Notes under the pieces: model-generated
What the model saw: the letters and a program-made list of their open reading frames with translations, nothing else
Database searches by the model: none
Told to the model about the DNA's origin: nothing
Shown: positions 2,227 through 50,131 of the stretch, piece by piece
Numbering within the stretch: the stretch's first letter is position 1
Layout of the letters: each line of letters opens with the position of its first letter
NCBI GenBank assembly: GCA_018806915.1
Contig: JAGKQI010000090.1
Location: 2,790,001 to 2,854,000, forward strand
DNA from: Phytophthora colocasiae
Lineage: Eukaryota > Oomycota > Peronosporomycetes > Peronosporales > Peronosporaceae
Reading direction: 5' to 3'
Length of the DNA stretch: 64,000 bases
Position numbers and translations under genes: made by a program

Positions 2227-2410
2227 CGTCCTGTAGCTTCAAGATCATATCTGAACCATCTTTGTCGTCCACGCCAATGTTCACCGAGCTCTCGTCATCC
2301 AGAGGCGTTTCCGTATCGCCCAATTCGTTCATCCATGAGAGTAAACGATCTCTCTGTAGTGCTCCGTCCATCTACCACGAGGAGCAAAAGCATATATAAA
2401 GTTTGTTCAC

Positions 2411-11649: not shown

Positions 11650-11654
11650 CCGAG

Positions 11655-12114
11655 TGTAACGGGGTTACACGTACAAGTGGTTGTACCACTTGTAGCTCTA
11701 ACAGTTAGGATAACTGTTAGAGGTTGGAAATGGGCCTCAGACCTTGGTGTGCTGTACACACCAATGGATACATGGGCGAACCGCATTATTGGGTGGTTCG
11801 TGTGCATTTGTGCATATTATTGGTAGAAAGTAACGGATTTCTACCAATCACTGAGCAGAGTTTCTGCCAACCACACGTTGGCAGACCCTTTAGAAATAGA
11901 TAACAAACAGTTTTAGGAGGTCCATAATTGGCTCATGCCAAATTCAATAACAGTTCTCATTTTACGGTATTTTGCAGTTTAATTTAGTTATATTTGATTT
12001 AATTATACTTATTTAAATAAGTATACTTAAATTAAGTCTATTCTAATTGCACGCTTCCTCATACACGTAAGCGCACGTGTACGCCATCTAATAGGTCTAG
12101 GTAGACCCATTACA
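11655..12114 (+). repeat. Element A 5' LTR
   Basis: The 460-bp terminal repeat is near-identical to 19451-19910. It contains several perfect inverted repeats, including TCTGCCAAC/GTTGGCAGA, and a 20-bp AT palindrome near 12010-12030. It is expected to carry the Pol II promoter and the polyadenylation signal. Confidence 0.95.
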
Positions 12115-12116
12115 CC

Positions 12117-12136
12117 TGGTAGCACTTGTAGTCCGT
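12117..12136 (+). promoter_or_regulatory. Element A primer-binding site
   Basis: TGGTAGCACTTGTAGTCCGT starts two bases after the 5' LTR. It begins with TGG, complementary to a tRNA CCA end. Element B has nearly the same sequence at the matching place, which supports its role in priming minus-strand DNA synthesis. I could not assign the tRNA. Confidence 0.7.
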
Positions 12137-12162
12137 CCCACGACCGACTGCTGTTCGTTCGT

Positions 12163-13148
12163 ATGGAGTCATACGAACGCGGGGTAGAGAACTCCCCAAT
12201 GGATGAGGGATCCGCTGGGACCCCTCAAATGTCCGTGACGCGCACGGACTGCCCCCACCTGTCTGATCCAGAGTGGGAGGCTCTCCAAAGACTCTCGCGA
12301 GTCATTGGAGAGGCAGCGGTAGCTACGATGCTTCGTACACTATCGCCGACAGAGCAACACGGTGTTGCTCTGGGGTACATTGCTAAGGAGCAACGAGATG
12401 TTGCTGCCTCGGTGGCTTCCCCTAAGCCACGCGTGGAGTCGTTGAAACTCCACGTGAGTACCTACACGGGGAAGGAGGACGAGACCCTCCTTCGGTGGCT
12501 TGTCGAACTCGACACAGCCGTTGCGGCTCGACGTATCGTCGATCCGATGTCGAAGGTCGCGTTCGCCATGTCATGTCTTGGCGGACGTGCGAGGAGTTGG
12601 GCCTATGGGCGCCGACTCTCGGATCCTACGTGCTTCAGCACGTACGAGGCGTTCAAGGAGGAACTCAAGCTTGCGTTTGAGCCTCCGAAGAACGAGTTCA
12701 GATCGAGAGCAGAGTTTCTCGATCTGCAACAGGGCAAGGATGATGTTCACACCTTTGCCCAGCGTGCTCGATACTTGGTATCGAACACAGTGGCCAACCC
12801 GATCGACGAGGCGACCAAGGTCGTCACGTTCATGAAGGGACTAAGAGATGGTCCCGTCAAAACATATCTCTTCCGAGAGTATCCGAATACTCTCGAGGAG
12901 GCGATCAGCCTTGCAATGCAAGAGGAGTTTAGCCGGCGTCAAGCTAACTCCATGCGAACGCGCCGAAGCCGGCGCGTCCTGTTGTGAAGACGGGAGGTCC
13001 GGAACCTATGGACCTCTCGAGTGCTACGACTGCTGGTCAACAGCAGCGTAGATACGGCAAGGTTCGATGTTACAAGTGTAGTAACATCGGTCACTATGCA
13101 CGCGAGTGCACAGCGGGCGGGCGTTCAAAAAACGCCAAGGACCAGTAG
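12163..13148 (+). pseudogene. Element A gag (capsid and CCHC nucleocapsid), one frameshift
   Basis: The start ATG lies inside the first stem of a 10-bp hairpin (12156-12179). Residues 1-260 form a retrotransposon Gag capsid-type domain (LRWLVELDTAVAARRI ... LKLAFEPPKNEF ... FMKGLRDGPVKTYLF). Near 12953 the frame breaks: the original frame stops at 12987, while the continuation (NAPKPARPVVKTGGPEPMD) is in the -1 frame. It reaches a CCHC zinc knuckle, CYKCSNIGHYAREC, at about 13068-13110 and stops at TAG 13146-13148. Element B has the same order in one frame, so the 12953 shift is a mutation. Gag would form the particle and bind the RNA. Confidence 0.85.
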
Positions 13149-13167
13149 GCGTGGGGCGTCCTACTGG
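13127..13167 (+). promoter_or_regulatory. Programmed -1 ribosomal frameshift signal, element A
   Basis: The heptamer AAAAAAC at 13127-13133 is phased as A AAA AAC in the gag frame, the classic X XXY YYZ slippery form. After an 8-nt spacer comes an 8-bp stem, CCAGTAGG (13142-13149) with CCTACTGG (13160-13167), with a 10-nt loop. The gag stop TAG lies inside the 5' arm. Protease opens in the -1 frame from this site. Element B has the same heptamer, phase, spacer length, stem and loop length. Function is inferred from sequence. Confidence 0.8.
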
Positions 13168-13783
13168 TGATGCAGTCTCGCGTGTCGAGCTTGGACACGC
13201 GACGATGAGGACTGCTGCCCCCAGCGAGAAGGTTTCTCGCTGTAAGCTGCAAGATGACAAGCCAAACCTTGTCATCCTGAACGTGATGTCGAAGAGAGCG
13301 AACTCTCTTCGTGCCCTAGTGGACTCGGGCGCGTCGAACAACTTTGTTCGACAGGGAAGTCTTCGAAGTTTTGACTTCGAAGAGGCCGACACGCCTCGCG
13401 GCGTGTTGGAGGTGCGGTTGGCAACAGGTTCCACCGTGAGGACTGAGAAGCGCGTAGTCCGTGTGCGCTTCTCTTACAAACGAAGGATGTTTGTAGAAGA
13501 TCTTATCGTCTTGGATCTAGACGATAAGTTCGACTTGGTATTAGGCATGCCGTGGCTTGCACGGCATGACCCGGTGATCAACTGGGAGAAGCGTACGCTC
13601 GTACGCTTCAACAACACATGCGCGACAGAGAGCGATGGCCCTGTCAGTGCTGCACATGCACCGGCCGGTGCATGTGGATCCCCAGTTGAGGCAGCAGCGG
13701 CCGCCGCTGCCTCCGATCGCCGCCGGCGACCATCAACGACTCCGGGAGTCGTTGTGAGAAAATGTGTCGACTCAGAAATCTGA
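13134..13783 (+). CDS. Element A protease region (-1 frame)
   Basis: Downstream of the slippery site the -1 frame begins with a basic segment containing GPVGVGRPTGD, conserved in element B as RPVGAGRPTGY. It then encodes a retropepsin-type aspartic protease with the active-site motif LVDSGASNNFV and the later LVLGMPWLARHDPVINW. It would cleave the Gag-Pol precursor. The frame ends at 13783 after an Ala-rich stretch, while Pol continues in a different frame from about 13764, so a further shift separates protease from the rest. Because the equivalent place in B is not built this way, I read it as damage and not programming. Confidence 0.85.
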
Positions 13784-16700
13784 GCCGAAGGGTCGCGGTC
13801 ACATGAGTGATGGTCAGGTGAATGTGAATCACCTGACGCGTAAACATCTGAATGATGTTTGTCACATGAGTGATGGTCAGGTGAATGCGATTCACCTGAG
13901 AGAAGGTAAAATACCGGTATTACCGGTATCCTTGGAGGTAGTTCAAGCCTCCAAGGGTCGCGCCGACGACGTCGCGTCAACTCTGGGAGTTGACGAAGCA
14001 AATAATATTCGGGGAACCGAAAGACGTGCGTCAGCTCTGGGAGCTGACGCCACTGGCGCTTCGCTGCTAGTTCCGGGAACTAGCGATCGGTCATCAGCTC
14101 CGGGAGCTGATGAGACGTGTATAGGCGAACAGTCGCTGCTAGTTCCGGGAACTAGCGATCGTACATCCGCTCTGGGAACGGATGATATGTGTACAAGCGA
14201 ACACTCGCTAGCGCAGGAAGCTAGCGAGAGCACGTCGACTCCGGGAGTCGACGATGCGGTTGCTTCATCCGCTCCGGGAGCGGATGGAGGCGCAGCGGTT
14301 CAGGGAACCGACTGCGTGGCAGGAGGTGCTGGCGGTTGCAAACGCCCAGCACCCGAACAACCTGCGTGCTCACGTGCAGCAGCGCTGCACGCGATGAGCG
14401 GCACTCAAGCCGGGCTTGATAGTGCGAGTCAGCGGAAGGAATCCGCTGACGATTGCGATAACGTCCCGTCCAAGGTGCGATGCCTTGGACGTGGAGCACC
14501 TGGAGCCGGGCTCCATGGTAGATCTTCGCGGCGCAAGCTCAGGGAGCTGTGCGAGTCTCAGTCCGGGACTGAGATAGGTGTATCTGCAGTGCAGACACCG
14601 AGTGTCGAGACGTTGAACGTCTTGACACGTACTGGTACTGGGTTACAGTACCAGAGGATGCGGTTGGAGAATCCGCCGACGAGTGCGTCGGCGTTGACCG
14701 CACTTCCAACGATAAGTTGGAAGCGCTTCGCGCGAGACTTGTACGATGGACGCATCGAACAAATTTGCATTCTCTCGGATATCGAGAGAGTGGATCGCTA
14801 AGCCGAAGAGCTGAAGCAGCTCGTCGTCGATGGCATCACTGAGGGCGATGACCCCCTCAGTGCGAAGACCAAGAAGCAACGCTTCGAGGAGCAGAGTTGG
14901 GACTCGTTGAAGTCGAGTCCCTATTACGAGATTCCTTCGGAGCTTCCGAAGGATAAGGGCGTACAGCACGAGATTGATCTCGTGCCGGGCACGAAGTACT
15001 GTGTTACACGGCAGTGGCCACTGCCGCGTGAACAAGTGCAAGCGATCGACGATTTCTTTGAAAGTCGTCGTCTTGCAGGTCAAGTGCGGGAGTCAAAGTC
15101 CCCGCACAGTGCCCCAACGTTCTGTGTTAAGAAACCACAGGGCGGCTGGCGCATCGTTCATGCGTACAACAAGTTGAACGATGCGACGATACCGGCGCAG
15201 ACGCCGATACCGCGAAAAGATGTTATCATCGATTCGATGGCCTTGAGCACTATCTTCAGTGCTCTAGATCTGCGTGATGGATTCTATCAGATCCTCATGC
15301 GTGAGAGGGACATCCCTCTCACAGCGGTAAGCACTCCAAGCGGTATGCTTTGGGAGTGGCTCGTCATGCCACAGGGGCTTAAGAACGCCCCTGCGACGTT
15401 CAATAGATGCGTGACACATCTATTGCGCTCGGTGCGCGACTTCGCACCGAGCTACTTCGACGACGTGTTCGTCCACAGCCGGACTGTGAACGGAAAGACG
15501 GACATTGAGATGCACAAGGTGCATCTCCGGAAGCTGCTAGAGCTTATGAGGAAACATAAGCTCTATGCGAACCTGAAGAAGTGTATAATCGGGGCGAGCG
15601 AGATACCCGTGCTGGGGTGTCTCGTGGGGAAAGACGGCGTGCGCCCTGACCCAGAGAAGGTCAGAGTGATCAATGAATGGCCCACGCCATCCAATGTGAA
15701 GGAACTGAGGCAGTTCCTTGGGCTTGCCACGTACTTGTGCAAGTACGTGGAGAACTATGCGGGCAAGATTCGCCCGTTGTCACAGCTTCTTTAGAAAGAA
15801 GCTGAGTGGATTTGGACGACCGAGTGCGAGGAGGCATTCGGTGCAGTCAAGCAGGGCTTGACTGAAGCGCCGATCTTGGCCGTGGCGGACCAAGATCGTC
15901 CATTCCACGTAGTGTGCGATGCATCCGACTTTGCAGTCGGATGTGCATTGATGCAACACGATCACGAAGGGCGTGATCGTGTAGTCTACTATCAATCGCG
16001 TCAGCTGAAGCCAGCTGAGCGTAACTATCCCGTACATGACAAGGAACTCCTTGCCATGAAGTATGCACTCGCAAAGTTCCGAGTGTATCTACTTGGGAGT
16101 AGACCGTTCGTGGTCTATACAGACCACGCATCATTGCGTACGGCGATTAAGTCGCCGCACATCTCGCAACGTATGGCGAGATGGTTGTCCTTCTTCGCGG
16201 AGTACAACTTCCGGGTGGAGTACAAACCCGGAAGACTCAATGTAGTGGCCGACGCGTTATCGCGTCGACCTGACTATGCGGAGACGGTCGACGCCAACGC
16301 TGTTGGCGTCGTGAGGACAAGTGTGCCGTCGTCAACGTTGATTGACGACGTGAAGAACGCGTATGCAAGGGATGCAGACGCGAAGGGGCTGCTGGAGTTC
16401 CTCGCAGCACCTTCCGACGTGGCACGTCGGAAGCTAACCCCTCATCTTCGAGCTCGTGTACACCGCTATCGTGTACACGAAGGCCTACTGTTGTACAGTG
16501 CAGTAGACGACAATGCGGATCGCATTGTCGTTCCGAATGATCATGACCTCCGGTTGAGGATCATGTTCGAGTATCACGATGCCCCCACGGCAGGGCATCC
16601 GGGTCGTGAGAAGACATACACTCTTCTCACGCGTGACTTCTACTGGCACCACCAGTACAAGTGGGTGTACAAGTACGTACGTGCTTGCGAGGTTTGTCAA

Positions 16701-18218
16701 CGCGTGAAGCCTGCGCAGTTCTCGCAGGCTCCTCTTCAATCACTACCGACTCCGTCGGAGTGTTGGCAGTCCATGTCCATGGACTTTGTCTTCGGTCTTC
16801 CGCCTGACAGCAAGCGGAGGACGGGCATCGTTGTCTTTGTGGACCGATTCAGCAAGATGGTTCATCTTGCTGCCGTCCCGGCTACTGTTACAGCCGCACA
16901 GACTGCGCGACTGTTTGTTGACATGGTGTTCAAACACCATGGCATGCCGCTCGACATTGTGTCGGACCGTGATCCACGCTTCACAGCGCGGTTCTGGCAA
17001 GAAGTGTTTACACTTCTTGGTTCACAGTTATCAATGTCGACTGCGGATCATCCGCAGACGGACGGACAGACCGAACGTGTCAACCGTGTATTGGGTGACA
17101 CGTTGAAGAGCTACGCTCACTCGTTCCCGCATTGGAGCGAGTGCTTGCCGATGGCAGAGTTTGCCATCAACAACTCGGTGCATGCCTCGACAGGGCATAC
17201 ACCGTTCTACGTGAACGCCATGAGGCATCCACGATTGCCGAGCGTGCTCGGCGGGGTAGCTTCCTCCTTAAGTGGGGGAGGATCTACGGTTGCGTCCGAA
17301 CAACCGCAGAATGCAACTGATAGCAGCACACTATCAGCTGCGGTGACGCGTGCGACGTCTCGTTCGAGCAGGATGTCTGTGCCGGGCACAGACATGAGAG
17401 ATGATAGCGAGCAGGCAGGGCCTGCTGCTGACAAGGGCGACAAGCTGAAAGGATTCAGCTCGGGTGCGCTAGACTTTGTCCAGCGAAGACAAGCCGTCAT
17501 ACGGTTTGTCCAGGATGCTATCGCAGCTTCTGTCGATCGACAGAAGCTGAACGCTGATACTGTTGGTAGAGGCAACACAAATGAATTCGAAAAGGGTTCA
17601 TTAGTTTTGTTAGCTACACAAAACCTACCTAGACATGCAGTGTCTGACTTTGGAGCAAGCAAGCTTGCTCCAAGATTCATTGGGCCGTTCAAAGTACTTG
17701 AACGGCACGGCAACGCGTACCGGCTGGACATACCGTCCAGCATGAGGCTCCACCCGACCTTCTACGTCGGGCGGTTGAAGCCGTACGTGCAGCACGGACT
17801 ACCTAGGGTTGGTAGTCCGACTGAGGAGTGCGAGAGGCCTGGAAGGCCTTCTCGAGACCGTCGACACGGTCGATCAATCGGTTCACTCTCGTCCCAAGAC
17901 CGGACGAGAGGTTCGAGGCAGTCTGAGCTGCCTCGCAGACCTCAGCACGGAGGACACGAACCTCCTGCTTCAGAGCAGCTATCTCAGCGCTCTGTGTCTG
18001 CTCCAGCGCAGCAACTCGATCGTGCAGGGCACGATCGTCATGGTCATAGCGTTGACCATGCGGAGGGAGTGTTCCCACCCCCTCCGCCGCCGTTGCGCGA
18101 CGCGCGTGGAGCGATCCGCTGGATTGTGGAGCGGGTCGTGGCTCATAAGAGAACGAACTCTCAAGGGGTTCGTTTTCGTATTCGTTGGAGAGGATTTCCT
18201 CCCCATCGAGATACATAG
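13764..18218 (+). pseudogene. Element A Pol: linker, RT, RNase H, integrase, chromodomain
   Basis: One frame (three blocks: to 14801, 14802-15794, 15795-18218) encodes the rest of Pol. First comes a 340-residue linker with degenerate repeats around LLVPGTSDR and GAD. Reverse transcriptase has the catalytic box YFDDVFVHS. RNase H shows CDASDFAVGCAL and TDHASLRTA, ending VVADALSRR. Integrase has the zinc part (H..H then CEVCQRVK) and the core motifs SMDFVFGLP, SDRDPRF and TDGQTERVNR. A chromodomain-like end (RFRIRWRGFPPHRDT) is cut by a small deletion at about 18213; its remainder, WEPRNVLMEDVPEMV, is out of frame. In-frame stops TAA (14799-14801) and TAG (15792-15794) make the copy non-autonomous. 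Confidence 0.9.
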
Positions 18219-19349
18219 AGCCGCGGAACGTCCTGATGGAGGACGTTCCGGAAATGGTGAGGGCGTACGAAGCCCACCATAACTTGCAGGGTTAAACCCT
18301 GCACGAGGAGTGCTGCGGTCAGCCACAGCACTCGGAGCTTCGCGTGGCACAATACGACCACGGAGTTCCTTGATGTGATCGGGTACACGGACGACCGTGT
18401 ACCCCAGGAGATCACTTTCGGTAAGGCGTGTTGCCAAGGGTTGGCAACACGGGCAGGGTGTGCCAAAGGGAACGGCACATGGGATCCCCGCTTCCATGGA
18501 CTGATCATGGAGGCGTTCACACTTACCACGTGTAGTGTAAGTGTAGTAGCGATCGCGAGCCGCAGCAACGCGATCGCGATATGCCTTCGGGTCTTTGTTG
18601 AAGTTATCAACAAAGGCGTTCCACGACTGACAAAGTGCCTGCCACTCTGGCACTTTGCTCTTGCGCGAAGTCTTCTTCGCTGCATAGTATCGAAGCTCGT
18701 GGAAGAGCCCGATATAGTAGTCGCGTCTTTGAGTCTCGGACTCAAAGACAACCTTAGCGGCGACGTCGTCGTCGTTGATACTGTTGCATGAGTACAATAG
18801 TATCGGGTTCGGTGGTGCACTAGCACCGAACCGGTCATGGATCTCCGCCTCAGTAGGCATCCATGGCGTGCGCACTGGCGGATCAGTGCGCGGTGCAGTG
18901 AGCGCCCTCGACATGGGGGACGCTTCATCATCACTGCGCGGACGCTTCGAGCTTGAAGTGTCCGAGGCCTCATGACGAGGTCGTCGAGATCCCACGGGTG
19001 GGTCTGACGTGTCTTCGGACGAAGACACGGGAGCGGGAGCCTTGACATCAACCTCCCCCTCCTCGACATCCTCCTCGTAGTCGAGGATGTCTTCGTAGTC
19101 CTCTCCAAAGAGTTCTTTGAGAGGGACAGCAGGATTCTTAATCTCTGCTAGAGAAGAAGACTTCTTCTTCTTCTCATGCTTCTCCTTATGGAGAGCATGG
19201 TACTTGGTGACAGAGAGCTTTTCTGTCGGACCGCTGGAAGCAGCAGTGCTAGTGAGCACTGCTGAGGTCGTTGTTCCTGCTGCAGAGGCAGCAGGTGAGG
19301 CTTGCGCGTCCGCAGTAGCGGACGGAGACGTGGGCGTTGGCGAGTCCAT
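17979..19349 (-). CDS. Antisense ORF of element A (456 codons)
   Basis: This frame starts about 100 bp inside the 3' LTR and runs opposite to gag-pol, with its tail overlapping the chromodomain region. The predicted protein has a Ser/Thr/Ala-rich N-terminus, a Lys-rich patch, an acidic stretch (EDYEDILDYEEDVEEGEVD), a Ser/Pro/Arg-rich part, and then a compact domain with SWNAFVDNFNKDPKAYRDRV and a Cys cluster ending CPCC. No known family was recognised. The antisense ORF of element B has SWNAFVDNFN-like WTAFVERWN, a similar following segment and a Cys cluster, in the same position and orientation. Conservation between diverged elements suggests a real gene. A nuclear or nucleic-acid-binding role is only a guess from its charge. 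Confidence 0.65.
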   Translation of the reverse strand: MDSPTPTSPSATADAQASPAASAAGTTTSAVLTSTAASSGPTEKLSVTKYHALHKEKHEKKKKSSSLAEIKNPAVPLKELFGEDYEDILDYEEDVEEGEVDVKAPAPVSSSEDTSDPPVGSRRPRHEASDTSSSKRPRSDDEASPMSRALTAPRTDPPVRTPWMPTEAEIHDRFGASAPPNPILLYSCNSINDDDVAAKVVFESETQRRDYYIGLFHELRYYAAKKTSRKSKVPEWQALCQSWNAFVDNFNKDPKAYRDRVAAARDRYYTYTTRGKCERLHDQSMEAGIPCAVPFGTPCPCCQPLATRLTESDLLGYTVVRVPDHIKELRGRIVPREAPSAVADRSTPRAGFNPASYGGLRTPSPFPERPPSGRSAALCISMGRKSSPTNTKTNPLRVRSLMSHDPLHNPADRSTRVAQRRRRGWEHSLRMVNAMTMTIVPCTIELLRWSRHRALR

Positions 19350-19437
19350 TGCGAAATGAACTCGGATTTCTCTTGGGAACTTGACGGTCTTGTCAAGTTC
19401 TGTTGATTGACGTATCGAGACCGATACGTCGAATCTT

Positions 19438-19450
19438 AACGGGGGGATGG
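19438..19450 (+). promoter_or_regulatory. Element A polypurine tract
   Basis: The tract AACGGGGGGATGG directly precedes the 3' LTR and is expected to prime plus-strand DNA. Element B has GGGGGTGG at the same place. Confidence 0.8.
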
Positions 19451-19910
19451 TGTAACGGGGTTACACGTACAAGTGGTTGTACCACTTGTAACTCTAACAG
19501 TTAGGATAACTGTTAGAGGTTGGAAATGGGCCTCAGACCTTGGTGTGCTGTACACACCAATGGATACATGGGCGAACCGCATTATTGGGTGGTTCGTGTG
19601 CATTTGTGCATATTATTGGTAGAAAGTAACGGATTTCTACCAATCACTGAGCAGAGTTTCTGCCAACCACACGTTGGCAGACCCTTTAGAAATAGATAAC
19701 AAACAGTTTTAGGAGGTCCATAATTGGCTCATGCCAAATTCAATAACAGTTCTCATTTTACGGTATTTTGCAGTTTAATTTAGTTATATTTGATTTAATT
19801 ATACTTATTTAAATAAGTATACTTAAATTAAGTCTATTCTAATTGCACGCTTCCTCATACACGTAAGCGCACGTGTACGCCATCTAATAGGTCTAGGTAG
19901 ACCCATTACA
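19451..19910 (+). repeat. Element A 3' LTR
   Basis: The 460-bp copy of the 5' LTR has one noted substitution. It is followed by the target duplication CCGAG at 19911-19915. The antisense ORF starts about 100 bp inside the element, so this LTR is a candidate promoter for antisense transcription. Confidence 0.95.
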
Positions 19911-19915
19911 CCGAG

Positions 19916-20662: not shown

Positions 20663-22784
20663 TCAATAGCGGTTGGTAATTTCATTGTCAACTCCGATGG
20701 CAAAGACGTTTGCACTGCAAGCTTTGAATGTTTGATCGGGATGACTCCGAGTAGCTCGCGCTGGCGACGAAGCAACTTCCACAACTCTCTTCTTGAAGTC
20801 TTCCGTGCTCACTGGTAACCTGAACGTTTCCAGCCGAGCCATTGGGACGACAAAACACATTTCAACCGTAGCAACTTTCTCCAGATCGCCAGCGAAGAGT
20901 GTATGTCTCATCAAACGTATGGCACTCAGCACGCGTCACTTGAACAAACCGCACAAGTTGTGCTGCTTTGTCGATAAAAACAGCTTCGTATCCGCCTTGG
21001 TTCCACTTCTTTGGAGCGATCCACACCGGACCATCCAATGAAACAGCAATCGGATACTTCTCTGGATCGAAAAATACGATGCTTGATCTCTTCCATTCGC
21101 CACATTGTAATGTCGATTCCACATACACGCTCCACGTTAGACCATTATGGCTGAGCTGAGCAAAAAACCAAGCTTCGAGGATAATACCACCCGTGGATGG
21201 ATACACATTGCAAGCCCTCACGAAATTCTCTACTAGATGCGGACCCATCACCGTTGCAAAGTGACGCACGACGTATTCGCTCACCAATCGAACGTCGGAA
21301 CTCTCATACCGAGCAAATAAAAGGCTGACAGCACCATACTTTGGTGATAATGAGTCGCCAACGTAGCCTCGAAGGTAAGGTACCAGGTCTGGTGCTTCCG
21401 CGATTGCGTTGTCAAGTTCTTCAATCGCCATAGCTGTTGAAGCTTCGAACATGAGTCTAGCGCTTCCACCGGCAATAAAGTATTTCTCTTGTAACAACTT
21501 GGTTCGCTCCGTCGCTTCCTTTTCTGGATCAGACTGTGTAGGAAACATGTCCACTACATTACGAAAGAAATCGTCGTTCAGGGCTGCCTTCTTATAATCA
21601 TCAAAGCACCATGACGTCAGCTCAAACAGCTCCTGTTCACGTACCACCTCCAGATTGTGTAATGCTCCAGCCGACATCTCCACATCCTCCATTTCACAGT
21701 CCCGTGACTCCTCATCCACTTTCGCCGGAATCGGATCGTAGAGTTCTGGACGATATTCTTTTCCGACAGAAACCATGGAGCAAACACACACCAATCGATG
21801 CTTGATTTTGTCTTGTTGATGCCAACGTAGGCACCTGAGATGAGCTGCCTCTATAGCTGCAGATGAATTGACATACCCATCCAGGAATACAATCGTTTTC
21901 CTTGTCTGAGACGTCGATTCCAAGATTGCTGCCAGATCACGCTCTATCGCTTTCTCCTGCAGGATACAAACCGCTTTCTTGTTACCCTTAAGCCAAACAC
22001 AATTAAAATGTTCTTGAATTCGCGAGTAATGAATCCAAATCACGTCCCAGCGCGATCGATCAAGTGAGCAAGCGAAGGCGAACGCTGCGCACGACTTTCC
22101 CGTTCCAGGTGGACCAACAACCCAAAGACGCGCATACGTTTGGATTGAGCACCTGTTCATCTCATTCCATTGCTTCACCAGAGGTGGCCGACGATAGAGG
22201 ATCAGCGCCTGATCAGGGCGACCAATTCCGGTACCACTGACGCAAGATGGTGGCAATTCAATCAGTTGATCGTCATCTCTAACGACGAGTTGAGGGCACG
22301 ATTCAGGAGCGATAGTCCAGTTGACTTGCGGTATATCGATGGTAATAGCCGCTCGACGCTGCTGCACTAGCCAAGGGGGCTTCACTAGTAGGTGCAAGTA
22401 ACCTGATGGGAGGTCTTTACCGAGAGCGTCTGCGATTGTTTCCAGTCCCGTAAATGACGTCCTGTCGTCTCCAATGATGTCCTTGATCTCGGCAGGAGCA
22501 TCGCCACTTAGCATAGCCTGCAGGGTTTCTTTAAAAGCAGGATCAGCAGACAGCCACGTGCCATCCGCCTTCTTGGCCTCAAAAAGCAGCAGCTCGCCTT
22601 GATCAACGTCCTTCAGTTCTGATTTGTACGCTTCCTTTATTGGCGCGCTCAAGGTCCCCACCAATGCATTCAACTTGGTGCTTAAGCTGACCGGCCGTCC
22701 GCGTACGCCAACGACGATACAGTTTACCACAATGCGGTTCTCTTGAGCTGCCATCGCGTCTTGTTCCATCTTCGCGTCTTCCAT
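20663..22784 (-). pseudogene. Crinkler-type (CRN) effector-like gene, copy 1, 3' frameshift
   Basis: The 640-codon frame starts MEDAKMEQDAMAAQ and is collinear with copy 2. The N-terminal ubiquitin-like Crinkler header has LLLFEAK near residue 65, in the position of the family LFLAK motif, and HLLVKPP near 130. A P-loop NTPase follows (GPPGTGKS, then TIVFLDGY as Walker B). The C-terminal part contains ILEAWFF and GGYEAVFIDK, resembling the restriction-enzyme-like nuclease of CRN proteins; copies 2 and 3 have D where this copy has E in GGYD. Near 20900 a deletion relative to copy 2 shifts the frame, and the usual last 90 residues continue out of frame to 20663. No signal peptide is visible. 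Family assignment is firm; activity is unknown. Confidence 0.8.
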
Positions 22785-23083
22785 CGCTTCTCTCGAAACT
22801 TGTAGAATGGCATACTAAACCAATATTAGAGGTTGTTGAAACATCAAGTGATGGTTGCATCCGTATGCCATTTTTCTTGGAGTTTTCGCGAATCGCGAGG
22901 TGCAGGTGCCCGGTACAGTTCAACCCTAGAGTATACCAGGATTTTACCTGCGACGGTTCCCAGCTTTCACAACCCCACAATACCAACCGCATAGCTTTCT
23001 TGATGGCCGTAAACTCAAACACTTGCTCAACTAAGCTTCGAACTGCTACAAATGCAAATGGAACAATTTGTTGTATTTGTGAT
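22785..23083. other. CRN copy 1 upstream region
   Basis: This is the 5' flank of CRN copy 1. It matches 61441-61745 closely, which places the promoter-side sequence of CRN copy 3 beyond MULE-2. A frame over 22603-23022 extends the CRN start upstream in another frame and looks incidental. No TATA box is evident. Confidence 0.5.
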
Positions 23084-27278: not shown

Positions 27279-27508
27279 CTCTTCTCAGCTCTCTCGAAAC
27301 TTGTAGAATGGTACTGTTTACTAAAACCAAGAGCGTATTTCCCTGCTAATACCGATAATCACGAACGTTCTTTCCAGAAATTACAATAGTAGCACTGTCC
27401 ACAAAATTATTCGGACTTAATCGGATTTTCTCCTGCATACAGTCATTCGACAAAATTGACTACTACTACCGTCTTACCGCGCATAATCCGTCTAGGCGTT
27501 AATAACGA

Positions 27509-43117: not shown

Positions 43118-43280
43118 TGTAACGGGGCGGTGCTTCTTGTATTATATAACTCTGGGTTGGTTTAGAAGGTGGTGGCGGCCTTGGAGCCGCCACAGCCACC
43201 AACCTATAGCTAGCAGAGATTGGCCGCGGTTCAACCAATCGAACCGCGGCGTGTGACGGGTATAGTGAAAGCCCGTCACA
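43118..43280 (-). repeat. Element B 3' LTR
   Basis: 163-bp repeat identical by eye to 49964-50126. It contains perfect inverted repeats (CCGCGGTTC/GAACCGCGG; GTGACGGG/CCCGTCAC). On the minus strand the purine tract ATAGGGGGTGG (43281-43291) immediately precedes it. Confidence 0.95.
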
Positions 43281-43360
43281 CCACCCCCTATCTAAAATAA
43301 AAGCTACATATAGAAATCTAAGGAAGCCCGACATTCGAGAATCGTCGGGGAGAAAGCAGA

Positions 43361-44383
43361 ATGACGGACAGCACGCGCGATGCAGTGATCGCTGCACGGC
43401 AAGCAGAGGGGATCGACACGTACGAGAGGGTCTTGGGGAGGTGGACGCTGCACGACTGCAGTGGCTTTGAGGACGGCCTGAACGATGGTGAGATGGTGGA
43501 GCTGTTCCGACGCTGGCGGGCCACCCGGAGCAAACCAGACGCGGCCAGTGGCCGCGTCACCGAGCGTTCACTTGACTGTGCGTGGACGGCTTTCGTTGAA
43601 CGCTGGAATACTGAGGGTGCGGATGCCTTTCAGCGCAAGCTAGCGCGACGCGAGGAGCAGCACTCGCGTCTGTCCGTTCGAGCTTTAGCTGACCAGATCT
43701 GCAACCTGTCGTGGATGGCAGACCGTGACTGTTGTTACGTCCACTTCAAGCAGCGTTGTACGAGTTGTAGTGGAAACAGCGTGCAGCAGCCAGATGTAAC
43801 GCGCTGGGAAGACATCGTTAAGGCAGTTCCTCTCTCTGGCACCGAGCGCAGCGTGATCGGACTGTACGACCGCGCATTATGGGAGGCTAGGCGCGGTGGC
43901 CCATCGCGCCACGATGAAGTCCCGTCTCATACGCTGCAACAGCATCTGGAACATCGACCAGAAGTACAGCGCGCGGTTCCCAGCTATCCTCAAGTGGACC
44001 GAGCCATCGCACCAGGTACTGGCGGTGCAGCGGTGGGTCACCATCGCGACGCCGAGCGTCGCGACTTCGATGCAGTGGACGCGCGCGATCGTCATCATGA
44101 GCCAATATACCCTCGACAATATGTCGAATATTACCACCCCGTCAACAAGTGGAGCGGGACCATCGCGCTGGAATGGAGGAACGGGACCGCTGGGAGGACG
44201 CTGCGATGGCGCGGCGTCTCGATCGAATGGAGCGCCGGCTGCGGGACTTGGAACGGGAGAACGGCGAGCTCCGTCATCAGCTGCCTCAGCAGTGGGCGCC
44301 GCGCCGCGCGGCGCCGGACTATCGCTAGGAAGCGAAGCGGGTTCATAGCGGCGGAGTCGGCCAACGTAGAAGGTAGGGTGTAG
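43361..44383 (+). CDS. Antisense ORF of element B (340 codons)
   Basis: The frame starts 80 bp inside the 3' LTR and runs opposite to gag-pol, like the antisense ORF of element A. Residues 1-150 contain LGRWTLHDCSGFEDGL, then WTAFVERWNTEGADAFQRKLA, then a Cys cluster (DRDCCYVHFKQRCTSCSG). The middle motif aligns with WNAFVDNFNKDPKAYRDRVA of A, and both are followed by a Cys cluster. The second half overlaps the chromodomain region on the other strand and is probably less constrained. It lacks the long Ser/acidic N-terminus of A. No known family recognised. Confidence 0.6.
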   Translation: MTDSTRDAVIAARQAEGIDTYERVLGRWTLHDCSGFEDGLNDGEMVELFRRWRATRSKPDAASGRVTERSLDCAWTAFVERWNTEGADAFQRKLARREEQHSRLSVRALADQICNLSWMADRDCCYVHFKQRCTSCSGNSVQQPDVTRWEDIVKAVPLSGTERSVIGLYDRALWEARRGGPSRHDEVPSHTLQQHLEHRPEVQRAVPSYPQVDRAIAPGTGGAAVGHHRDAERRDFDAVDARDRHHEPIYPRQYVEYYHPVNKWSGTIALEWRNGTAGRTLRWRGVSIEWSAGCGTWNGRTASSVISCLSSGRRAARRRTIARKRSGFIAAESANVEGRV

Positions 44384-44401
44384 CCGCAGGGTACTAGGCA
44401 A
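43887..44401 (-). pseudogene. Element B Pol C-terminus, out of frame (chromodomain)
   Basis: After a frameshift at about 44405 the Pol sequence continues as STLRLHPTFYVGRLRRYEP. In a further frame lies a chromodomain-like YLVRWLGPLEDSWEPR ... DVPDAVAAYE. Chromodomains in gypsy elements guide integration to marked chromatin. At least two shifts separate it from the main Pol frame, so this copy is broken here. Confidence 0.7.
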
Positions 44402-44404
44402 CTG

Positions 44405-47400
44405 CTGTAGGCGTCCCCTAATACCTTGAGCACCTTGAATGGTCCGATATACCTCGGGGCGAGCTTGTTTGCACCAAGATTTGTCACTAGTGTCGGCGCT
44501 ATCCCATTGGTGGATAATAGAACGCGATCCCCAACGTGGAATGTCTCCATGTTCTTTCTCCCTCTGCGGTCGGCATTCTCCTTCTGGCGATCGACGGCCG
44601 CAGCAATCGCATCGCGGACGTAGCGGACAATGGACTCGCGCTGTCGCACGAACTCATGGACAGCCGCAGCGTCGCTTCGCTGCGGCGCTGCGTTGGGCGC
44701 AAAGTTTGCTGGCGGAGGATCAGTAGGCGCGACCGGATCGGGAGCAGTGTGAAGCTCAGCTGCGCGCCGCGGACGCGGGTTGATTAGCGTCCGACTGGTC
44801 CAAGCGGCAACGTCCCGTGGAGAAGCAGTCACCGCTCGCGCGGCAGCCCGTGTAAGAGGACGCTGGCTTGGGATCCGCGTGGAAGACCTCGTGCTCACCG
44901 CGTTCACATCCGTGTCAGCGGCCATCTCATGCGTCGCGACGGGGGCACCACCAGTGGGGGTGGGAGTCGTAGCGTCGTCATTCTCGGACAGTTGAACTGG
45001 AAGGGGGCGCTCCAGCCCAAGGAGCGCCGGAACGCGCGGATGACGGCCGAAGTTTACGAAGAACGGCGTCAAGCCAGTTGACGCGTGCGCGGCATTATTG
45101 ATGGCGAACTCCACCATCGGCAGGAAAGAGCTCCATGACTTGAACGACGTGGCGTAACTCCTCAGCACGTCTTCAACAACCCGATTAACACGTTCGGTCT
45201 GGCCATCGGTCTCAGGATGCGACGCGGTGGACATCGCCAACCGCGTCCCGACAAGTTTGAAGAGTTCCGTCCAGAAAGCAGCAGTAAAACGTGGGTCACG
45301 ATCAGATACAATTGAGGACGGAAGTCCATGGTGGCGATACACTGTGTCTAGAAACAGCGCCGCCGACTGAGACGCGGTGATCGAAGACGCCACGGGAGCA
45401 AGATGGACCATCTTGCTAAATCGGTCGACGAAAACAAGTATGCCTGTACGGCCCTGAGCGTCTCGCGGCAGACCAAAGACGAAATCCATGCTGACCGATG
45501 TCCACGGACCCGTCGCGACTGGAAGGGGTCGAAGCGGAGCTCGCTTCGACGGCGACGGTTTGACGCGCTGGCACGCTTCACAGGAGCGGACCCACTTGCG
45601 AACCCACTTGTACATGTGTGGCCAGTAAAAGTCGCGCGATAGTGACGCGAATGTTTTCTCGCGTCCGAGGTGGCCGCCGCTCGGCGTGTCATGGAACTCG
45701 TGAATCAGCCGAGCTCGGAGATCGTCGTCCAGAGGAACGACGATGCGCGGGGGGTCTTCACGGTCGACGCGGTACGTGAGCAACTCCCCGTCCAGCGCGT
45801 AGCGATCGACGCGGGAGCGGCCGCGTGGAGACAGCTTGCGCTTCGACGCGACACCAGGGTCGCGCAGGAACTGGATCAGCTCCAAGCAGGGCGCGTCCTC
45901 CTTGTACGCGTCCACGATCAAGTCGTGGAGCGGACTGGTCGCTGCAACCTCAACAGCAGCGACGTCTTCGGCAGTGCAGACAGCGCATTCATCGTCATCC
46001 TCGTCGCCAACTGCGTGGCGACCGCGCGGCACGTAATCCGGCCTGCGTGAAAGCGCGTCGGCGAGGATGTTGGACTTGCCCGGTTTGTAATGCACGACGA
46101 AATTGTACTCGGAGAAGAGCGACAACCAGCGCGCCATGCGCTGGGACAAGTAGCTCTTCGTCGCTGTCCTCAGCGACGCGTGATCTGTGTAGATTGCGAA
46201 GGTCTTCTCACCGAGGAGATACACACGGAACTTGATGAGTGCGTAGCGCATGGCAAGCAGCTCTTTATCATGAACCGGATAATTCCGTTCCGCCTGCTTC
46301 AGTTGGCGCGACTGGTAACTCACCACTCGCTCGCGACCCTCGTCGTCAAACTGCATCAAGGCACAGCCGATCGCGAAGTCGCTCGCGTCGCACACAACGT
46401 GGAACGGCTTTGATTGATCTGGAAGCATCAAGACGGGCGCGGTTGACAAACTCGTCTTCACCGCGTCGAAGGCTGTTTGGTGCTCGGGGCGCCATGACCA
46501 CATGGCGTCTGCCTTCAGGAGTTGAGACAGCGGTTGGATCGTCAGCGCGAAGTTCTTCGAGTAATTGTGGAGATACGTCGCGAGCCCCAACCACTGACGG
46601 AGCTGCTTCTGGTCCTGCGGCACGGGCCAAGCGCAAATGGCTTCAATCTTCTCGGGGTCAGCACGGACACCTTCCCTGCTGACGTAGCTCCCGAGCACTG
46701 GGATCTCGGGAGCGCAGAAGATACACTTCTTCAAGTTGGCGTACAGCTTGTTCTCTCGCATCACTTGGAACACCTGCCGCAGGTGTTGCAGATGCATCTC
46801 GACGTCCGTCAAGCCCCGTTCAGCACGGCTGTGGATGAAAATGTCATCAAAGTAGCTGGGCGCGAAGTCCCGGTACGGGCGGAGCAAGTTTGACACCATG
46901 CGGTTGAAGGTGGCAGGGGCGTTCTTGAGCCCCTGTGGCATCACAAGCCATTCCCAAAGCATTCCACTGGGCGTGCTGACCGCGGTCAGCGGTACGTCAT
47001 CCTCCCGCATCAAGATCTGATAGAAGCCGTCCATCAGATCGATCGCACTGTATTTGGTACTCCCCGACATGGTGTCGAGCACCATGTCTTTCCGCGGGAT
47101 CGGCGTCTGCGCCGGGATGGTGGCATCGTTGAGCTTGTTGAAGGCGTGGACGATCCGCCATCCACCGGTTGCTTTCTTCACGCAGAACGTCGGACTGGAG
47201 TGCGGGGACAGACTCTCACGGACGTGGCCGGCTTGCCGGCGACCCTCGAAGAAGGTGTCGATTGCTTCGACTTGATCACGGGGAAGCGGCCATTGCCTCG
47301 TCACGCAGTATTTTGCGCCAGGCACGAGGTCGATCTCGTGCCGAACTCCACGGTCCGGTGGAAGGACGGCTGGCACCTTGTCAGGGAAGATGTCGATGAA

Positions 47401-48447
47401 CTCGCGAACCAGCGGAGCAACCGAGTTACCAGCGGCTTCGAGTGCTGGTAACGACTGGGCCAAGTAGCGAGCCTCGCGAGCGGACTTAGGCTCAGCGCCT
47501 TTCGGGCGTTCCCGGGTATTGGGCGCTGGGTCACCAGCATCTACATCGACAGCCGCGATCGTCGCGGTGTTGTCCGCGACGATCATGCAAACCTGCTCGA
47601 TCTCGCCATGTTTCAAGTCGCGGAGAAAGTGTTTCCAAGACAGGCCAGGCAACTTGGTGATCTCAGACGCATCGCACGGCGGGCGTGCGACCTCGACATT
47701 GTGCATTCGCGGGATCGATGCCGCGTCGTCCCCAATCAGAACGGAGATAACCTCGGAGTCAGACGCGTCTGACTCATTCGGAGGAGTGCGGGGTCGCCGG
47801 GGCTGGCGGCGACCGCGGCGACGGACTGGCCGGGTGAACTCTTCCGTAGCAGGCAGTGGGAGACCACGCTCGACCAGGTCTGCTGCACTCAGACGCCGAG
47901 ACACGACATCGGCGTCGACTCTATCAGGGAGCCCCTGCTCAACCACATGCGGGAGCCCCTGCTCGACCGCTCGTGGGAGACCACGCTCAACCACATCTTC
48001 TTGTTCATCGTCAACGGAGAGCCGCTGCTCGTCCGTGCGTGGGAACCCCTGTTCGACCACATTGCTGGCTGTTGCCGAGAGCCGCTGCTCATCGGGACGT
48101 GGGAACCCCTGTTCGACCACGGTGGTGTCTGCTGCCGAGAACCGCTGCTCATCGGGACGTGGGAACCCCTCTTCTACCACGGTGTTGTCTGCTGCCGAGA
48201 GCCACTGCTCATCGGGACGTGGGAACTCATGCTCGACCACGTCAGACATGTCTTGAGTCACCTGCTCAAGACCTGCACACGTCACAGGCTCGCGAGCACC
48301 CGAAGGGCCATCGCTCACTTCGGATACAACGGGAGTCATGGATTCGGGGTCCATGACTGCAACGTGTGGCCATCGATTGGGCGTCCCGCATAGGGATGCC
48401 AATACCGCATTCACATCAATGTCGCGCGGACGGACAGTTCGAGCCAA
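44405..48447 (-). CDS. Element B Pol: repeat linker, RT, RNase H, integrase
   Basis: This long frame (about 1,350 codons before the 3' shift) begins with a linker holding about seven copies of a roughly 20-residue unit like VVEQGFPRPDEQRLSAAD (about 47860-48240). RT follows with SYFDDIFIHS as catalytic box. RNase H has CDASDFAIGCAL and TDHASLRTA, ending LADALSRR. The integrase zinc motif includes HLGREKT ... CEACQRVK, and the core shows SMDFVFGLP, SDRDPRF and TDGQTERVNR. Upstream it is cut from protease by a shift at about 48468, where residues between GIP and RHQPHIDW are missing. Polymerase and integrase domains look intact. Confidence 0.9.
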
Positions 48448-48880
48448 CCAGTCAATATGAGGCTGGTGACGGGGATGCCGAAGACACAGTCGAAGGATCC
48501 GGCCAACTCGATCACCAGAAAGTCATCGGACCCATGGAAACCGTCGAACTCGTAAGAGAAGGTGGCCGAACGCCGCGGGACACGCCGCGGCTTCCCGTCA
48601 GCATACTTAACAACCATGTGGCCGGGACCTTCCCGAACTCGCATGTTCGCCGGTAACACCGACAAACTCTCGGCGCGAACGAAGTTGTTCGTCGCGCCTG
48701 AATCCAGCAGGGCGCGAAGCGGACGCTTCGCGCCATTGACGTGGATACTGAGGATGATCAGTCTCAGGTCACTGCCGGAGGTGGTGGCAAAGAATTGTGC
48801 ATGAAGCACGTGGGGGCTAGGAGGAGGATCTGCCACCAGAGATCCGTCGTCCTCATCATACCCAGTAGGGCGCCCCGCAC
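48411..48880 (-). pseudogene. Element B protease (-1 frame), 3' deletion
   Basis: The -1 frame opened by the slippery site encodes RPVGAGRPTGY, then FFATTSGSDLRL, then the aspartic-protease active site LLDSGATNNFV and FDCVFGIP. The stretch corresponding to PWLA in element A is lost, with a frame change, at about 48468; the continuation RHQPHIDWLART is in the Pol frame. The small deletion probably destroys processing of the polyprotein. Confidence 0.8.
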
Positions 48881-48902
48881 CTACTGGTCGTCGCCGTTTT
48901 TT
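48862..48902 (-). promoter_or_regulatory. Programmed -1 ribosomal frameshift signal, element B
   Basis: On the minus strand the heptamer AAAAAAC (48902-48896) is phased A AAA AAC in gag. An 8-nt spacer is followed by the stem CCAGTAGG/CCTACTGG (48887-48880 with 48869-48862) and a 10-nt loop. The gag stop TAG (48883-48881) is in the 5' arm. Every feature matches element A. Confidence 0.8.
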
Positions 48903-49930
48903 GGGATGGCGACTGTATCATCAGCAACGTTGGCGACAACGTGTGCCAAGACCGGAGCAGGAGCGCGGCACACAGCCGCGCGATGTCCGAATTTGCGACA
49001 GCGAAAGCATCGGAGAGGGCGTGAACCGCGGCCAGATACCGGAGCCGGGCGAGTAGATGTCGTCGGCGAGTTGTCGCGCCGATGGCCACGGTAATCCTGG
49101 ATGGCGTCAATCTCCATCGGCTCGGGCTCCGTGGCAGGAGGCCTGACGAGAGAGAACGCCTCGGAGGCGGACACGCTGTAGTCCTCGCGCAGCGCCGTCT
49201 CAAACGCTTCCTCCAGCGAGTCGGGCGTCTTTCGTGTCAAATAGAAGCGCTGATAACCAGCGTTCATACCAGAGATGAAGACATGGACTTGAGTCGCCAT
49301 GTCCACCGGCTTCGTCGTGATGCACGACACCAAGTGACGAGCCCGTTGAATGTACTCGAGCATGGACATCCGACCCTGCTTCAGCGACAGGAACGCCGAG
49401 CGCTGAACCTGTTCGTCTTGAGGGGGCTCAAAAGCCAGGCGGAGATCGCTCTTCAGCGATTCCATCGTCGAAAAGCAGGAGGCGTCGGCAACAAGCTTGC
49501 CGAGCGCCCACTCCTTGGCCTTCCCCGTTAACTTGGACAAAAGGAACCGGGTACGAGCGAACTCGGTAGACAGCTGCCGAGCTTCGATCGCGATGTCGAT
49601 CTCACAGAACCAGCGGTTCAGCTGGAGGCGAGCGGCGCCATCGCCGCTGTAGCAGGAGACATCGAGTTTCACGATGTCAGTCTTGTTCTTGGTCGGCGTG
49701 GGAGTCGTCGCACGCCGACGCAGGTCAGCGAGCTCACGCGCCATGAACTCGTGAGCAGCCAGTCGTTGATCTTCTTCCGTTCCGGCAGTCAGCAAGGTCT
49801 TGATGACTCCTTCTCCGGACACCGCGGCAAGACGGTGTAGCGCCTCCCACTCGAAGGCGGACAAGTGGGGGAAGCTGGCATGCTCGAGGGCAGCACCAGC
49901 CCCTTCGGTGAAATAGGAAGCGTCATTCAT
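48881..49930 (-). CDS. Element B gag (349 codons)
   Basis: The undamaged Gag frame starts MNDASYFTEGAG. Its capsid-type region contains LNRWFCEIDIAIEAR, LRLAFEPPQDEQ and FISGMNAGYQRFYL, matching element A. The nucleocapsid CCHC knuckle is CFRCRKFGHRAAVC, and the frame ends GDDQ at the TAG within the frameshift hairpin. It lies 33 bp inside the 5' LTR, just after the primer site. Since Gag is intact and LTRs identical, this copy or a close sibling was recently active. Confidence 0.88.
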   Translation of the reverse strand: MNDASYFTEGAGAALEHASFPHLSAFEWEALHRLAAVSGEGVIKTLLTAGTEEDQRLAAHEFMARELADLRRRATTPTPTKNKTDIVKLDVSCYSGDGAARLQLNRWFCEIDIAIEARQLSTEFARTRFLLSKLTGKAKEWALGKLVADASCFSTMESLKSDLRLAFEPPQDEQVQRSAFLSLKQGRMSMLEYIQRARHLVSCITTKPVDMATQVHVFISGMNAGYQRFYLTRKTPDSLEEAFETALREDYSVSASEAFSLVRPPATEPEPMEIDAIQDYRGHRRDNSPTTSTRPAPVSGRGSRPLRCFRCRKFGHRAAVCRAPAPVLAHVVANVADDTVAIPKNGDDQ

Positions 49931-49963
49931 GGTCGTGTGGACGGACTACAAAGTGCTACCAGA

Positions 49964-50126
49964 TGTAACGGGGCGGTGCTTCTTGTATTATATAACTCTG
50001 GGTTGGTTTAGAAGGTGGTGGCGGCCTTGGAGCCGCCACAGCCACCAACCTATAGCTAGCAGAGATTGGCCGCGGTTCAACCAATCGAACCGCGGCGTGT
50101 GACGGGTATAGTGAAAGCCCGTCACA
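49964..50126 (-). repeat. Element B 5' LTR
   Basis: 163-bp repeat. Two bases inside it on the minus strand is the primer-binding site TGGTAGCACTTTGTAGTCC (about 49943-49961), almost the same as in element A. Confidence 0.95.
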
Positions 50127-50131
50127 ACCAA

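What the first reader, a model, noticed from the sequence alone, without database searches (positions are those of the whole stretch)
11655..19910. A whole retrotransposon built of short perfect hairpins
Element A is an almost continuous chain of perfect inverted repeats with arms of 5-10 bp and loops of about 2-15 nt. In 12150-13570 I counted about 35, roughly one per 40 bases. Examples: CGTTCGTATG/CATACGAACG (12156-12179, holding the gag start), AGAGCAACAC/GTGTTGCTCT (12351-12371), CTTATCGTCT/AGACGATAAG (13502-13528), CCACGTACTT/AAGTACGTGG (15727-15750), GTGTTGCCAA/TTGGCAACAC (18428-18450). They fill LTRs, coding DNA in several frames and the antisense ORF, and stop at the element edges. Related element B encodes similar protein (e.g. 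LRQWLGLATYL) with far fewer. Possible causes are selection for RNA structure (packaging, reverse transcription, or evasion of silencing with stems too short for Dicer) or repeated template switching that perfects quasi-palindromes. I know of no described element with this property.
Basis: seen in the sequence. Interest (0 to 1): 0.92.

Follow-up and report, generated by a model that had tools for sequence, protein, structure and literature searches.

The report
Jumping gene armoured with tiny hairpins
A mobile genetic element in a Phytophthora-like water mould folds almost its whole length into hundreds of short perfect hairpins, and natural selection appears to keep them there, perhaps to hide the element from the cell's RNA-silencing defences.

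Summary
Confirmed, and stronger than claimed. Element A (11655-19910, a Ty3/Gypsy LTR retrotransposon) holds 123 perfect inverted repeats with arms >=8 and loops <=15, 14.9 per kb; equal stretches either side hold 0.2 and 0.5 per kb. Coding pieces exceed codon-preserving shuffles 17- to 35-fold. Folding-energy difference (MFED) is 35% sense and 43% antisense; a coronavirus paper gives 15% for SARS-CoV-2 and 23.4% as its highest (PMC7642675, passages). In 33 copies, variants shared by >=3 copies avoid stem interiors (12 seen, 42 expected; 31 v 50 with the most liberal stem definition), while private mutations do not (139 v 139). Four of five stem pairs polymorphic on both sides keep two Watson-Crick forms. 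So selection very likely maintains the stems. Related families carry the trait in grades (E strong, C weak, without a selection signal); three B-type elements lack it. Stem positions mostly turn over between families. [quoted passage not shown] Shielding from small-RNA silencing is the most likely role, but inferred.

The parts
11655..19910 (+). Element A: Ty3/Gypsy LTR retrotransposon filled with short perfect hairpins (123 with arms >=8, loops <=15)
   Evidence: LTR pair and TSD; hairpin counts; domains. Several scripts used 11655-19908, two bases short.
11650..11654 (.). target-site duplication CCGAG, left copy (right copy 19911-19915)
   Evidence: read
11655..12114 (+). 5' LTR, 460 bp, 14 hairpins with arms >=6
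   Evidence: one difference from the 3' LTR; counts
12115..12140 (+). putative primer-binding site (end approximate); lies in a hairpin-free gap of 45 nt (12108-12152); gaps of this size are not rare in A
   Evidence: position just after the 5' LTR; a nearly identical stretch follows the LTR of element C; gap; gap lengths
12031..12987 (+). gag open frame (Retrotrans_gag, Ty3_capsid); an in-frame ATG read by eye at 12163 lies in a hairpin arm
13085..13783 (+). protease piece (RVP_2)
13758..18218 (+). pol region in one frame with two in-frame stops in this copy: RT, RNase H, integrase, Tf2-1-like SH3, sub-threshold chromodomain
   Evidence: pieces searched apart
14061..14209 (+). 72-bp tandem repeat, 2.1 copies, whose units carry hairpins (the other arrays found in A have periods of 8-15)
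17979..19349 (-). antisense gene, 456 aa, between pol and the 3' LTR (its end overlaps pol); hairpin-filled like the rest (23 with arms >=8)
   Evidence: 456 relatives at E<=0.001 among the 7993 candidates scored, 120 listed, those with a species name from Phytophthora; counts
19451..19910 (+). 3' LTR
43118..50126 (-). Scripts used 43117 or 43119 as its start.
43322..44383 (+). open frame antisense to element C's pol, next to its 3' LTR (353 aa); weakly similar to A's antisense protein
   Evidence: 24% over 107 aa, E 2e-4 for the single comparison

Best explanation
Element A belongs to a group of oomycete Ty3/Gypsy retrotransposons whose sequence, coding or not, has evolved, within the limits of its proteins, into a chain of short local stem-loops (one per about 37 bases at arms >=6, one per 67 at arms >=8; mostly arms up to 11 bp and loops 0-10 nt). 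Purifying and compensatory selection keep the stems while copies still propagate; after insertion the stems mutate freely. Shown here: the structure, its element-wide extent, the selection signature in A, strand symmetry in A, and grading among families. Inferred: (1) that the hairpins form in the element's RNAs; (2) that their use is generic shielding rather than many separate signals, since positions mostly turn over between families; (3) that the threat shielded against is small-RNA silencing: stems would hide the RNA as a target and make small RNAs of either strand self-folding, while staying too short to be Dicer substrates. The element also carries a conserved antisense gene, so both strands are probably transcribed, which would favour structure on both. 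My estimates: selected structure 0.9; generic shielding given that, 0.6; silencing as the threat given both, 0.6. The confidence below is for selected structure acting as a generic shield, whatever the threat; the whole chain including silencing stands at about 0.3.
For: Hairpin excess over codon-preserving shuffles. MFED 35.4% sense and 43.3% antisense over 23 windows of 350 nt, lowest sense window 20.3%. Over 33 copies, stem-core sites have as many singletons as other sites (135 at 1087 sites v 264 at 2211, p 0.69) but fewer variants shared by >=3 copies (12 v 94, p 2.7e-7); apex and outermost pairs are less constrained than the core (p 2e-6 and 0.002). With stems taken from any copy the deficit persists: 31 v 50.1 (all shifts; fraction as low 0.0015; 0 of 278 nearby shifts); with stems in >=15 copies, 10 v 42.1; singletons 165 v 166.5 and 143 v 140.0. 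At synonymous sites, window-defined stems: 6 shared to 40 private v 56 to 99, p 0.003. Compensatory change: 4 of 5 doubly polymorphic stem pairs have two Watson-Crick forms; partners slid by 1-3 columns give 0-1 of 2-9. Amino-acid identity to relatives is equal in stem and non-stem codons. Arm lengths have a second peak at 9 (51, v 27 at 8) and fall from 17 at 11 to 3 at 12; 81% of predicted pairs span <=40 nt v 48% in the left flank. Phytophthora transposon small RNAs are mainly 25/26 nt (PMC3804510, passages); A's hairpins with arms >=8 span 17-36 nt, mode 23. Antisense gene conserved.
Against: No expression, small-RNA or probing data were available; the silencing role rests on analogy. The weak family C shows no constraint or covariation in its 28 aligned copies. 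Compensatory pairs in A are few: two of the four sit at the apex of one-base loops and the other two in one hairpin, in linked haplotypes, so they may be two or three events. The any-copy stem set gives only p 0.018 in the Fisher test. Family E leans to G-U over A-C (6 v 1), which fits sense-RNA selection better than strand-neutral shielding. B-type elements are abundant without structure. Six near-perfect duplexes of 18-22 pairs exist in A, so long stems are rare, not absent. Transposons in Phytophthora may be silenced at chromatin, where RNA structure would matter less.
Confidence: 0.5

Rival explanations
1. Selection on the sense genomic RNA only: the stems serve packaging, reverse transcription, stability or translation of the element's RNA, as one large GORS-type fold.
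For: The putative primer-binding site lies in a hairpin-free gap, though such gaps are not rare. Family E leans to G-U over A-C in single-mismatch stems (6 v 1). GORS precedent in RNA viruses (PMC7642675).
Against: A shows no G-U preference (12 v 14; stricter setting 1 v 5). Among inner stem pairs with shared variation the non-Watson-Crick forms in >=3 copies are 7 G-U, 8 A-C and 3 others (my tally of the list). Relative to shuffles the antisense strand folds at least as well. Helices are isolated: pairing beyond the arms falls to background.
Confidence: 0.25
2. A mutational process: the element's reverse transcriptase repeatedly switches template at quasi-palindromes and perfects them, with no benefit.
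For: Stems are perfect, strand-symmetric and limited to the element and its kin; pairing ends abruptly outside the arms. Perfecting during copying would also restore stems and so mimic conservation of shared variants.
Against: Stem codons show no loss of amino-acid identity to relatives. At one pair a one-sided intermediate haplotype exists in 3 copies (C-G, A-G, A-T), which suggests stepwise change. Random correction should often fix the new base in both arms, yet stem pairs with shared variation are mostly one-sided (36 v 5). Arm lengths have a second peak at 9 and a sharp fall after 11 instead of a geometric tail.
Confidence: 0.15
3. Selection on DNA: hairpins in single-stranded cDNA or extruded cruciforms aid reverse transcription, integration or chromatin escape.
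For: Strand symmetry in A; loops have more private mutations (66 at 366 sites v 264 at 2211, p 0.002), as single-stranded loops might.
Against: Arms of 8-11 bp with loops are poor cruciform formers (general knowledge). The loop excess of private mutations is seen in transitions of both kinds and in transversions and could reflect relaxed constraint.
Confidence: 0.09
4. Chance, base composition, codon usage, or a repeat array.
For: One 72-bp tandem array carries some hairpins.
Against: Codon shuffles, Markov sequences and dinucleotide shuffles; 116 distinct inner 8-mers among 124 stems; flanks and B-type elements at or below chance.
Confidence: 0.01

Closest known systems
[quoted passage not shown]
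   Same: Consecutive local stem-loops along the whole coding and non-coding sequence, measured by MFED; strength is a property of a lineage while positions of pairs are poorly conserved between relatives; linked by its authors to shielding from host recognition.
   Different: Here in an LTR retrotransposon of a water mould; MFED 35% sense and 43% antisense against 15% (SARS-CoV-2) and 23.4% (highest that paper gives for vertebrate RNA viruses); helices short, perfect and isolated; in A both strands fold about equally well. I call it GORS-like, not a member.
Viroids, folding to escape RNA silencing (PMC3185485: search listing with start of abstract only)
   Same: Compact self-pairing proposed as a constraint set by silencing.
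   Different: Viroids are small non-coding circular RNAs (general knowledge); A codes for proteins through the same bases.
Retand-type Gypsy elements with antisense ORFs in plants (PMC11963269: search listing with start of abstract only)
   Same: Long internal region; the title names the stretch from pol to 3' LTR and the listing counts 10 uses of 'antisense ORF'.
   Different: No relationship of the antisense proteins was tested; Retand is described there as a non-chromovirus plant lineage, while A has a sub-threshold chromodomain match and an oomycete host.
Oomycete Ty3/Gypsy retrotransposons of Phytophthora and Pythium
   Same: RT relatives: 1706 proteins at E<=0.001, the 120 listed at 66-93% identity, including Phytophthora, Globisporangium, Pythium and Peronosclerospora.
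   Different: Their DNA could not be fetched, so whether they carry the hairpins is unknown.

Membership tests
Ty3/Gypsy LTR retrotransposon | paired LTRs, target-site duplication, gag, PR-RT-RH-IN order | tested here: met
   460-bp LTRs with one difference, 5-bp TSD; Pfam gag, RVP_2, RVT_1, RT_RNaseH, integrase in order
Chromovirus-like Gypsy | C-terminal chromodomain | tested here: inconclusive
   PF00385 21.2 bits, below its cut-off of 25.1
GORS | MFED well above shuffled controls along the whole sequence | tested here: met
   35.4%, 23 of 23 sense windows at 20.3% or more; my shuffle keeps dinucleotides exactly, with 12 shuffles per adjacent 350-nt window; the paper uses NDR and overlapping windows
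GORS | pair positions poorly conserved between relatives | tested here: met
   Stem centres that coincide, arms >=7: A v C 4 of 60 (3.4 expected), A v E 5 of 40 (2.7), C v E 4 of 22 (1.5); arms >=6: A v E 13 of 49 (7.8 expected, 3% of shifts as high); closer pair C v C2 7 of 30 (1.3). So weak to partial overlap.
GORS | structure favours the sense genomic RNA (expected of an RNA-level role; my wording, not taken from the paper) | tested here: not met
   A: antisense folding excess equal or larger; no G-U preference in A. Family E leans to G-U, 6 v 1
GORS | RNA virus with host persistence | tested here: not met
   A is a retrotransposon; RNA accessibility could not be tested
Silencing-escape structure (viroid-like) | reduced small-RNA targeting because of folding | not testable with these tools
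   no small-RNA reads available

The most novel reading that the evidence does not exclude
A group of oomycete retrotransposons has evolved a strand-symmetric armour: nearly every stretch of the element on either strand folds into roughly small-RNA-sized perfect hairpins, so that targets are closed and any small RNA cut from either strand folds on itself, while almost no stem is long enough to be diced. It would be the most structured long coding sequence known to me and a passive counter-defence against RNA silencing written largely into synonymous sites.
Probability: 0.3. Interest if true: 0.95.

Novelty: new variant of a known kind. Interest (0 to 1): 0.87.

Why it matters
It shows that a second, element-wide code can be held by selection across some 8 kb of coding and non-coding DNA of a transposon, stronger than the RNA-virus values quoted in the coronavirus GORS paper. 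The natural contrast of strongly structured (A, E), weakly structured (C) and unstructured (B, D) elements in one genome makes an old question, whether transposons escape RNA silencing by folding, directly testable with ordinary small-RNA and probing data.

Tried and rejected
Rejected: chance and composition; dispersed repeat or tandem array as the source; window-copy ascertainment as the sole cause of stem conservation (any-copy stems and shift tests; it does account for part, since the deficit shrinks from 12 v 42 to 31 v 50). A codon-phase preference of stems was looked for and gave no clear pattern (27, 30 and 30 stems in the three phases, summed). The raw covariation test over all linked variant pairs, without regard to stems, was uninformative: complementary pairs were no commoner than pairs with identical letters (8 v 8 at 1-10 nt, 5 v 5 at 11-20, 1 v 2 at 21-30, 6 v 6 at 31-45); only pairs in stem register gave a signal. 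The C family gave no selection signal. Between families, double changes at stem pairs were too few to judge (for example C stems in C2: 4 Watson-Crick of 8; A stems in E: 2 of 8; one third expected by chance). The arm-loop anticorrelation (Spearman -0.35) may arise from chance inner extension and is not used. The antisense z-score seemed lower than sense, but a second run showed no significant difference (p 0.31); MFED was again higher on antisense. Relatives in viral contigs: none confirmed in two scans. First alignments with loci in the wrong orientation were discarded and redone.

Those for ordered RNA structure or MFED with retrotransposon (35, 62), Phytophthora or oomycete with hairpin, inverted repeats or palindrome (36, 49), folding energy with retrotransposon (53) and structure with silencing or evasion listed no paper whose title or shown abstract start describes such an element. 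Only open-licence papers are held, and none of these was read in full.
Full report
What is there. It has 460-bp LTRs with one difference between them and a 5-bp target-site duplication CCGAG. Pfam finds gag, protease, reverse transcriptase, RNase H and integrase in Ty3/Gypsy order plus a Tf2-1-like SH3 domain; the chromodomain match is below its cut-off. This copy has two in-frame stops in pol; most of the places listed have the RT stretch open. The genome is 92.5 Mb in 105 contigs; Crinkler domains in neighbouring frames and protein relatives point to Phytophthora or close kin. The species is not known to me.

The hairpins are real. The five quoted examples are at their coordinates. A holds 223 perfect inverted repeats with arms >=6 and loops <=15, and 123 with arms >=8; equal stretches on the two sides hold 39 and 32, and 2 and 4. 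The five coding pieces each exceed every one of 100 codon-preserving shuffles at arms >=6, >=7 and >=8. Against first-order Markov sequences the 30 A-type loci of about 4 kb (L009-L038) run at 11.9-17.4 per kb for arms >=8, with 0.1-0.5 expected. The excess is restricted to loops up to about 16 nt. Pairing outside the arms falls to background at once. Arm lengths have a second peak at 9 and drop from 17 at 11 to 3 at 12. Near-perfect duplexes of 12-16 pairs are only modestly above one shuffle (94 v 70), though six of 18-22 pairs exist where the shuffle has none.

How strong it is. With adjacent 350-nt windows and dinucleotide shuffles, MFED (sense, antisense) is 35.4 and 43.3% for A; 30.0 and 34.0 for one locus of family E; 6.5 and 9.3 for C; 9.8 and 5.9 for C2; 8.8 and 5.8 for C3; -5.7 to -4.6 sense and -6.6 to -2.4 antisense for three B-type elements; 0.3 and 2.8 for D; and -1.3 to 1.9 for two other stretches of the window. 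A coronavirus study gives about 15% for SARS-CoV-2, 7.5-10.7% for hepatitis C virus and 23.4% as the highest recorded among vertebrate RNA viruses (PMC7642675, passages). My shuffling and windows differ slightly from theirs.

Selection. A 4-kb part was aligned for 33 copies (the window copy, 29 close copies and three fetched as more diverged); 30-base blocks with local identity under 80% were masked and columns with fewer than 15 letters skipped. Private mutations, which mostly arise after insertion, fall on stem cores as often as elsewhere (135 at 1087 sites v 264 at 2211). Variants shared by three or more copies, which probably passed through active elements, are about four times rarer in stem cores (12 v 94; p 2.7e-7); apex and outermost pairs are less constrained than the core. 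Because stems were first defined on the window copy, the test was repeated with stems found in any copy: 31 seen against 50.1 from shifted masks (0.15% of all shifts as low, 0 of 278 nearby shifts); with stems present in at least 15 copies, 10 against 42.1. The Fisher test for the any-copy set is weaker (p 0.018). The effect holds at synonymous sites with window-defined stems. Five stem pairs vary on both sides and four keep Watson-Crick pairing in two forms, against 0-1 of 2-9 in slid controls; two of the four lie in one hairpin and two are apex pairs of one-base loops. One pair shows an intermediate haplotype (C-G, A-G, A-T). By eye, outer pairs near 14405 and 14498 also covary with their hairpins. 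In the C family (28 copies) neither signal appears.

Which strand. In A, single mismatches inside stems are 12 G-U and 14 A-C as read on the sense strand. Relative to shuffles, folding is not significantly different between strands in one run (p 0.31) and stronger on the antisense in two others, which were not tested for significance. Selection on the sense RNA alone should leave G-U pairs behind. Family E does lean that way (6 v 1), and C the other (0 v 3), on small numbers; the families may differ.

Protein cost. Stem codons of A (locus L010) are as conserved in amino acid as other codons against C, C2, C3 and E (for example 76% v 69% against C; no p under 0.2 in these four comparisons). The stems therefore lie within protein limits, which speaks against indiscriminate arm copying.

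Spread of the trait. C's RT is about 71-72% identical in amino acid to A-type copies and 68-70% to E-type ones. The trait is strong in A and in the three E loci (19-20 per kb at arms >=6, 3-5 expected), weaker in C and its 80-82% relatives; three B-type elements have no repeat with arms >=7. Stem positions coincide little more than by chance between A and C, slightly between A and E, and partly between C and C2. What is conserved is the habit of folding, not most individual stems.

Antisense gene. Between pol and the 3' LTR, on the other strand, lies a gene of 456 codons (17979-19349) with 456 relatives at E<=0.001 among the candidates scored (120 listed, those with a species name from Phytophthora, up to 71% identity at full length). 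C has an antisense frame in the same place, weakly similar. Both strands of these elements are therefore probably transcribed, which would give selection a reason to fold both.

Mechanism. I take the hairpins to be a generic shield. The most likely threat is RNA silencing: Phytophthora makes 25/26-nt small RNAs from transposons (PMC3804510, passages), stems of 8-11 bp are too short to be diced (general knowledge), and a hairpin spanning about 23 nt would close both the target and any guide cut from it. This last step is inference. Template switching, sense-RNA functions and DNA-level functions remain as rivals with the weights given. It works like GORS; I do not file it as a member, because A is not an RNA virus and its structure does not favour the sense strand.

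Noticed in passing
229-2238 (-), L072, L073: B-type Gypsy elements are less structured than shuffles (MFED about -5% sense) and have no inverted repeat with arms >=7 in 6.2 kb, where about 0.8-1 per kb is expected: a possible opposite strategy in a related group.
   Followed up: partly
17979-19349 (-): A conserved antisense protein family without a Pfam match at E<=0.001 (its open frame was scanned), carried by the element and widespread in Phytophthora annotation as hypothetical proteins.
   Followed up: partly
43113-50131: Element C with TSD ACCAA sits directly beside the 50115-53828 Gypsy pol frame, which suggests insertion into or next to another element.
   Followed up: no
14061-14209: 72-bp tandem unit in pol before the RT; the units carry related hairpins that differ at a pair, A-T in one and G-C in the other, as read by eye.
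   Followed up: partly
20862-22814, 25101-27284 and 40427-42070 (-): Three related open frames, two with a Crinkler N-terminal domain, in segmental repeats (blocks at 72-98% identity).
   Followed up: no
A copies, hairpin loops: Loops carry more private mutations than other sites (66 at 366 sites v 264 at 2211).
   Followed up: partly
A's LTR in G000: The 40 scored of 674 candidate places all match a 377-base part of A's LTR at 99-100%, so the family was recently active; older copies would not show in this capped list.
   Followed up: no
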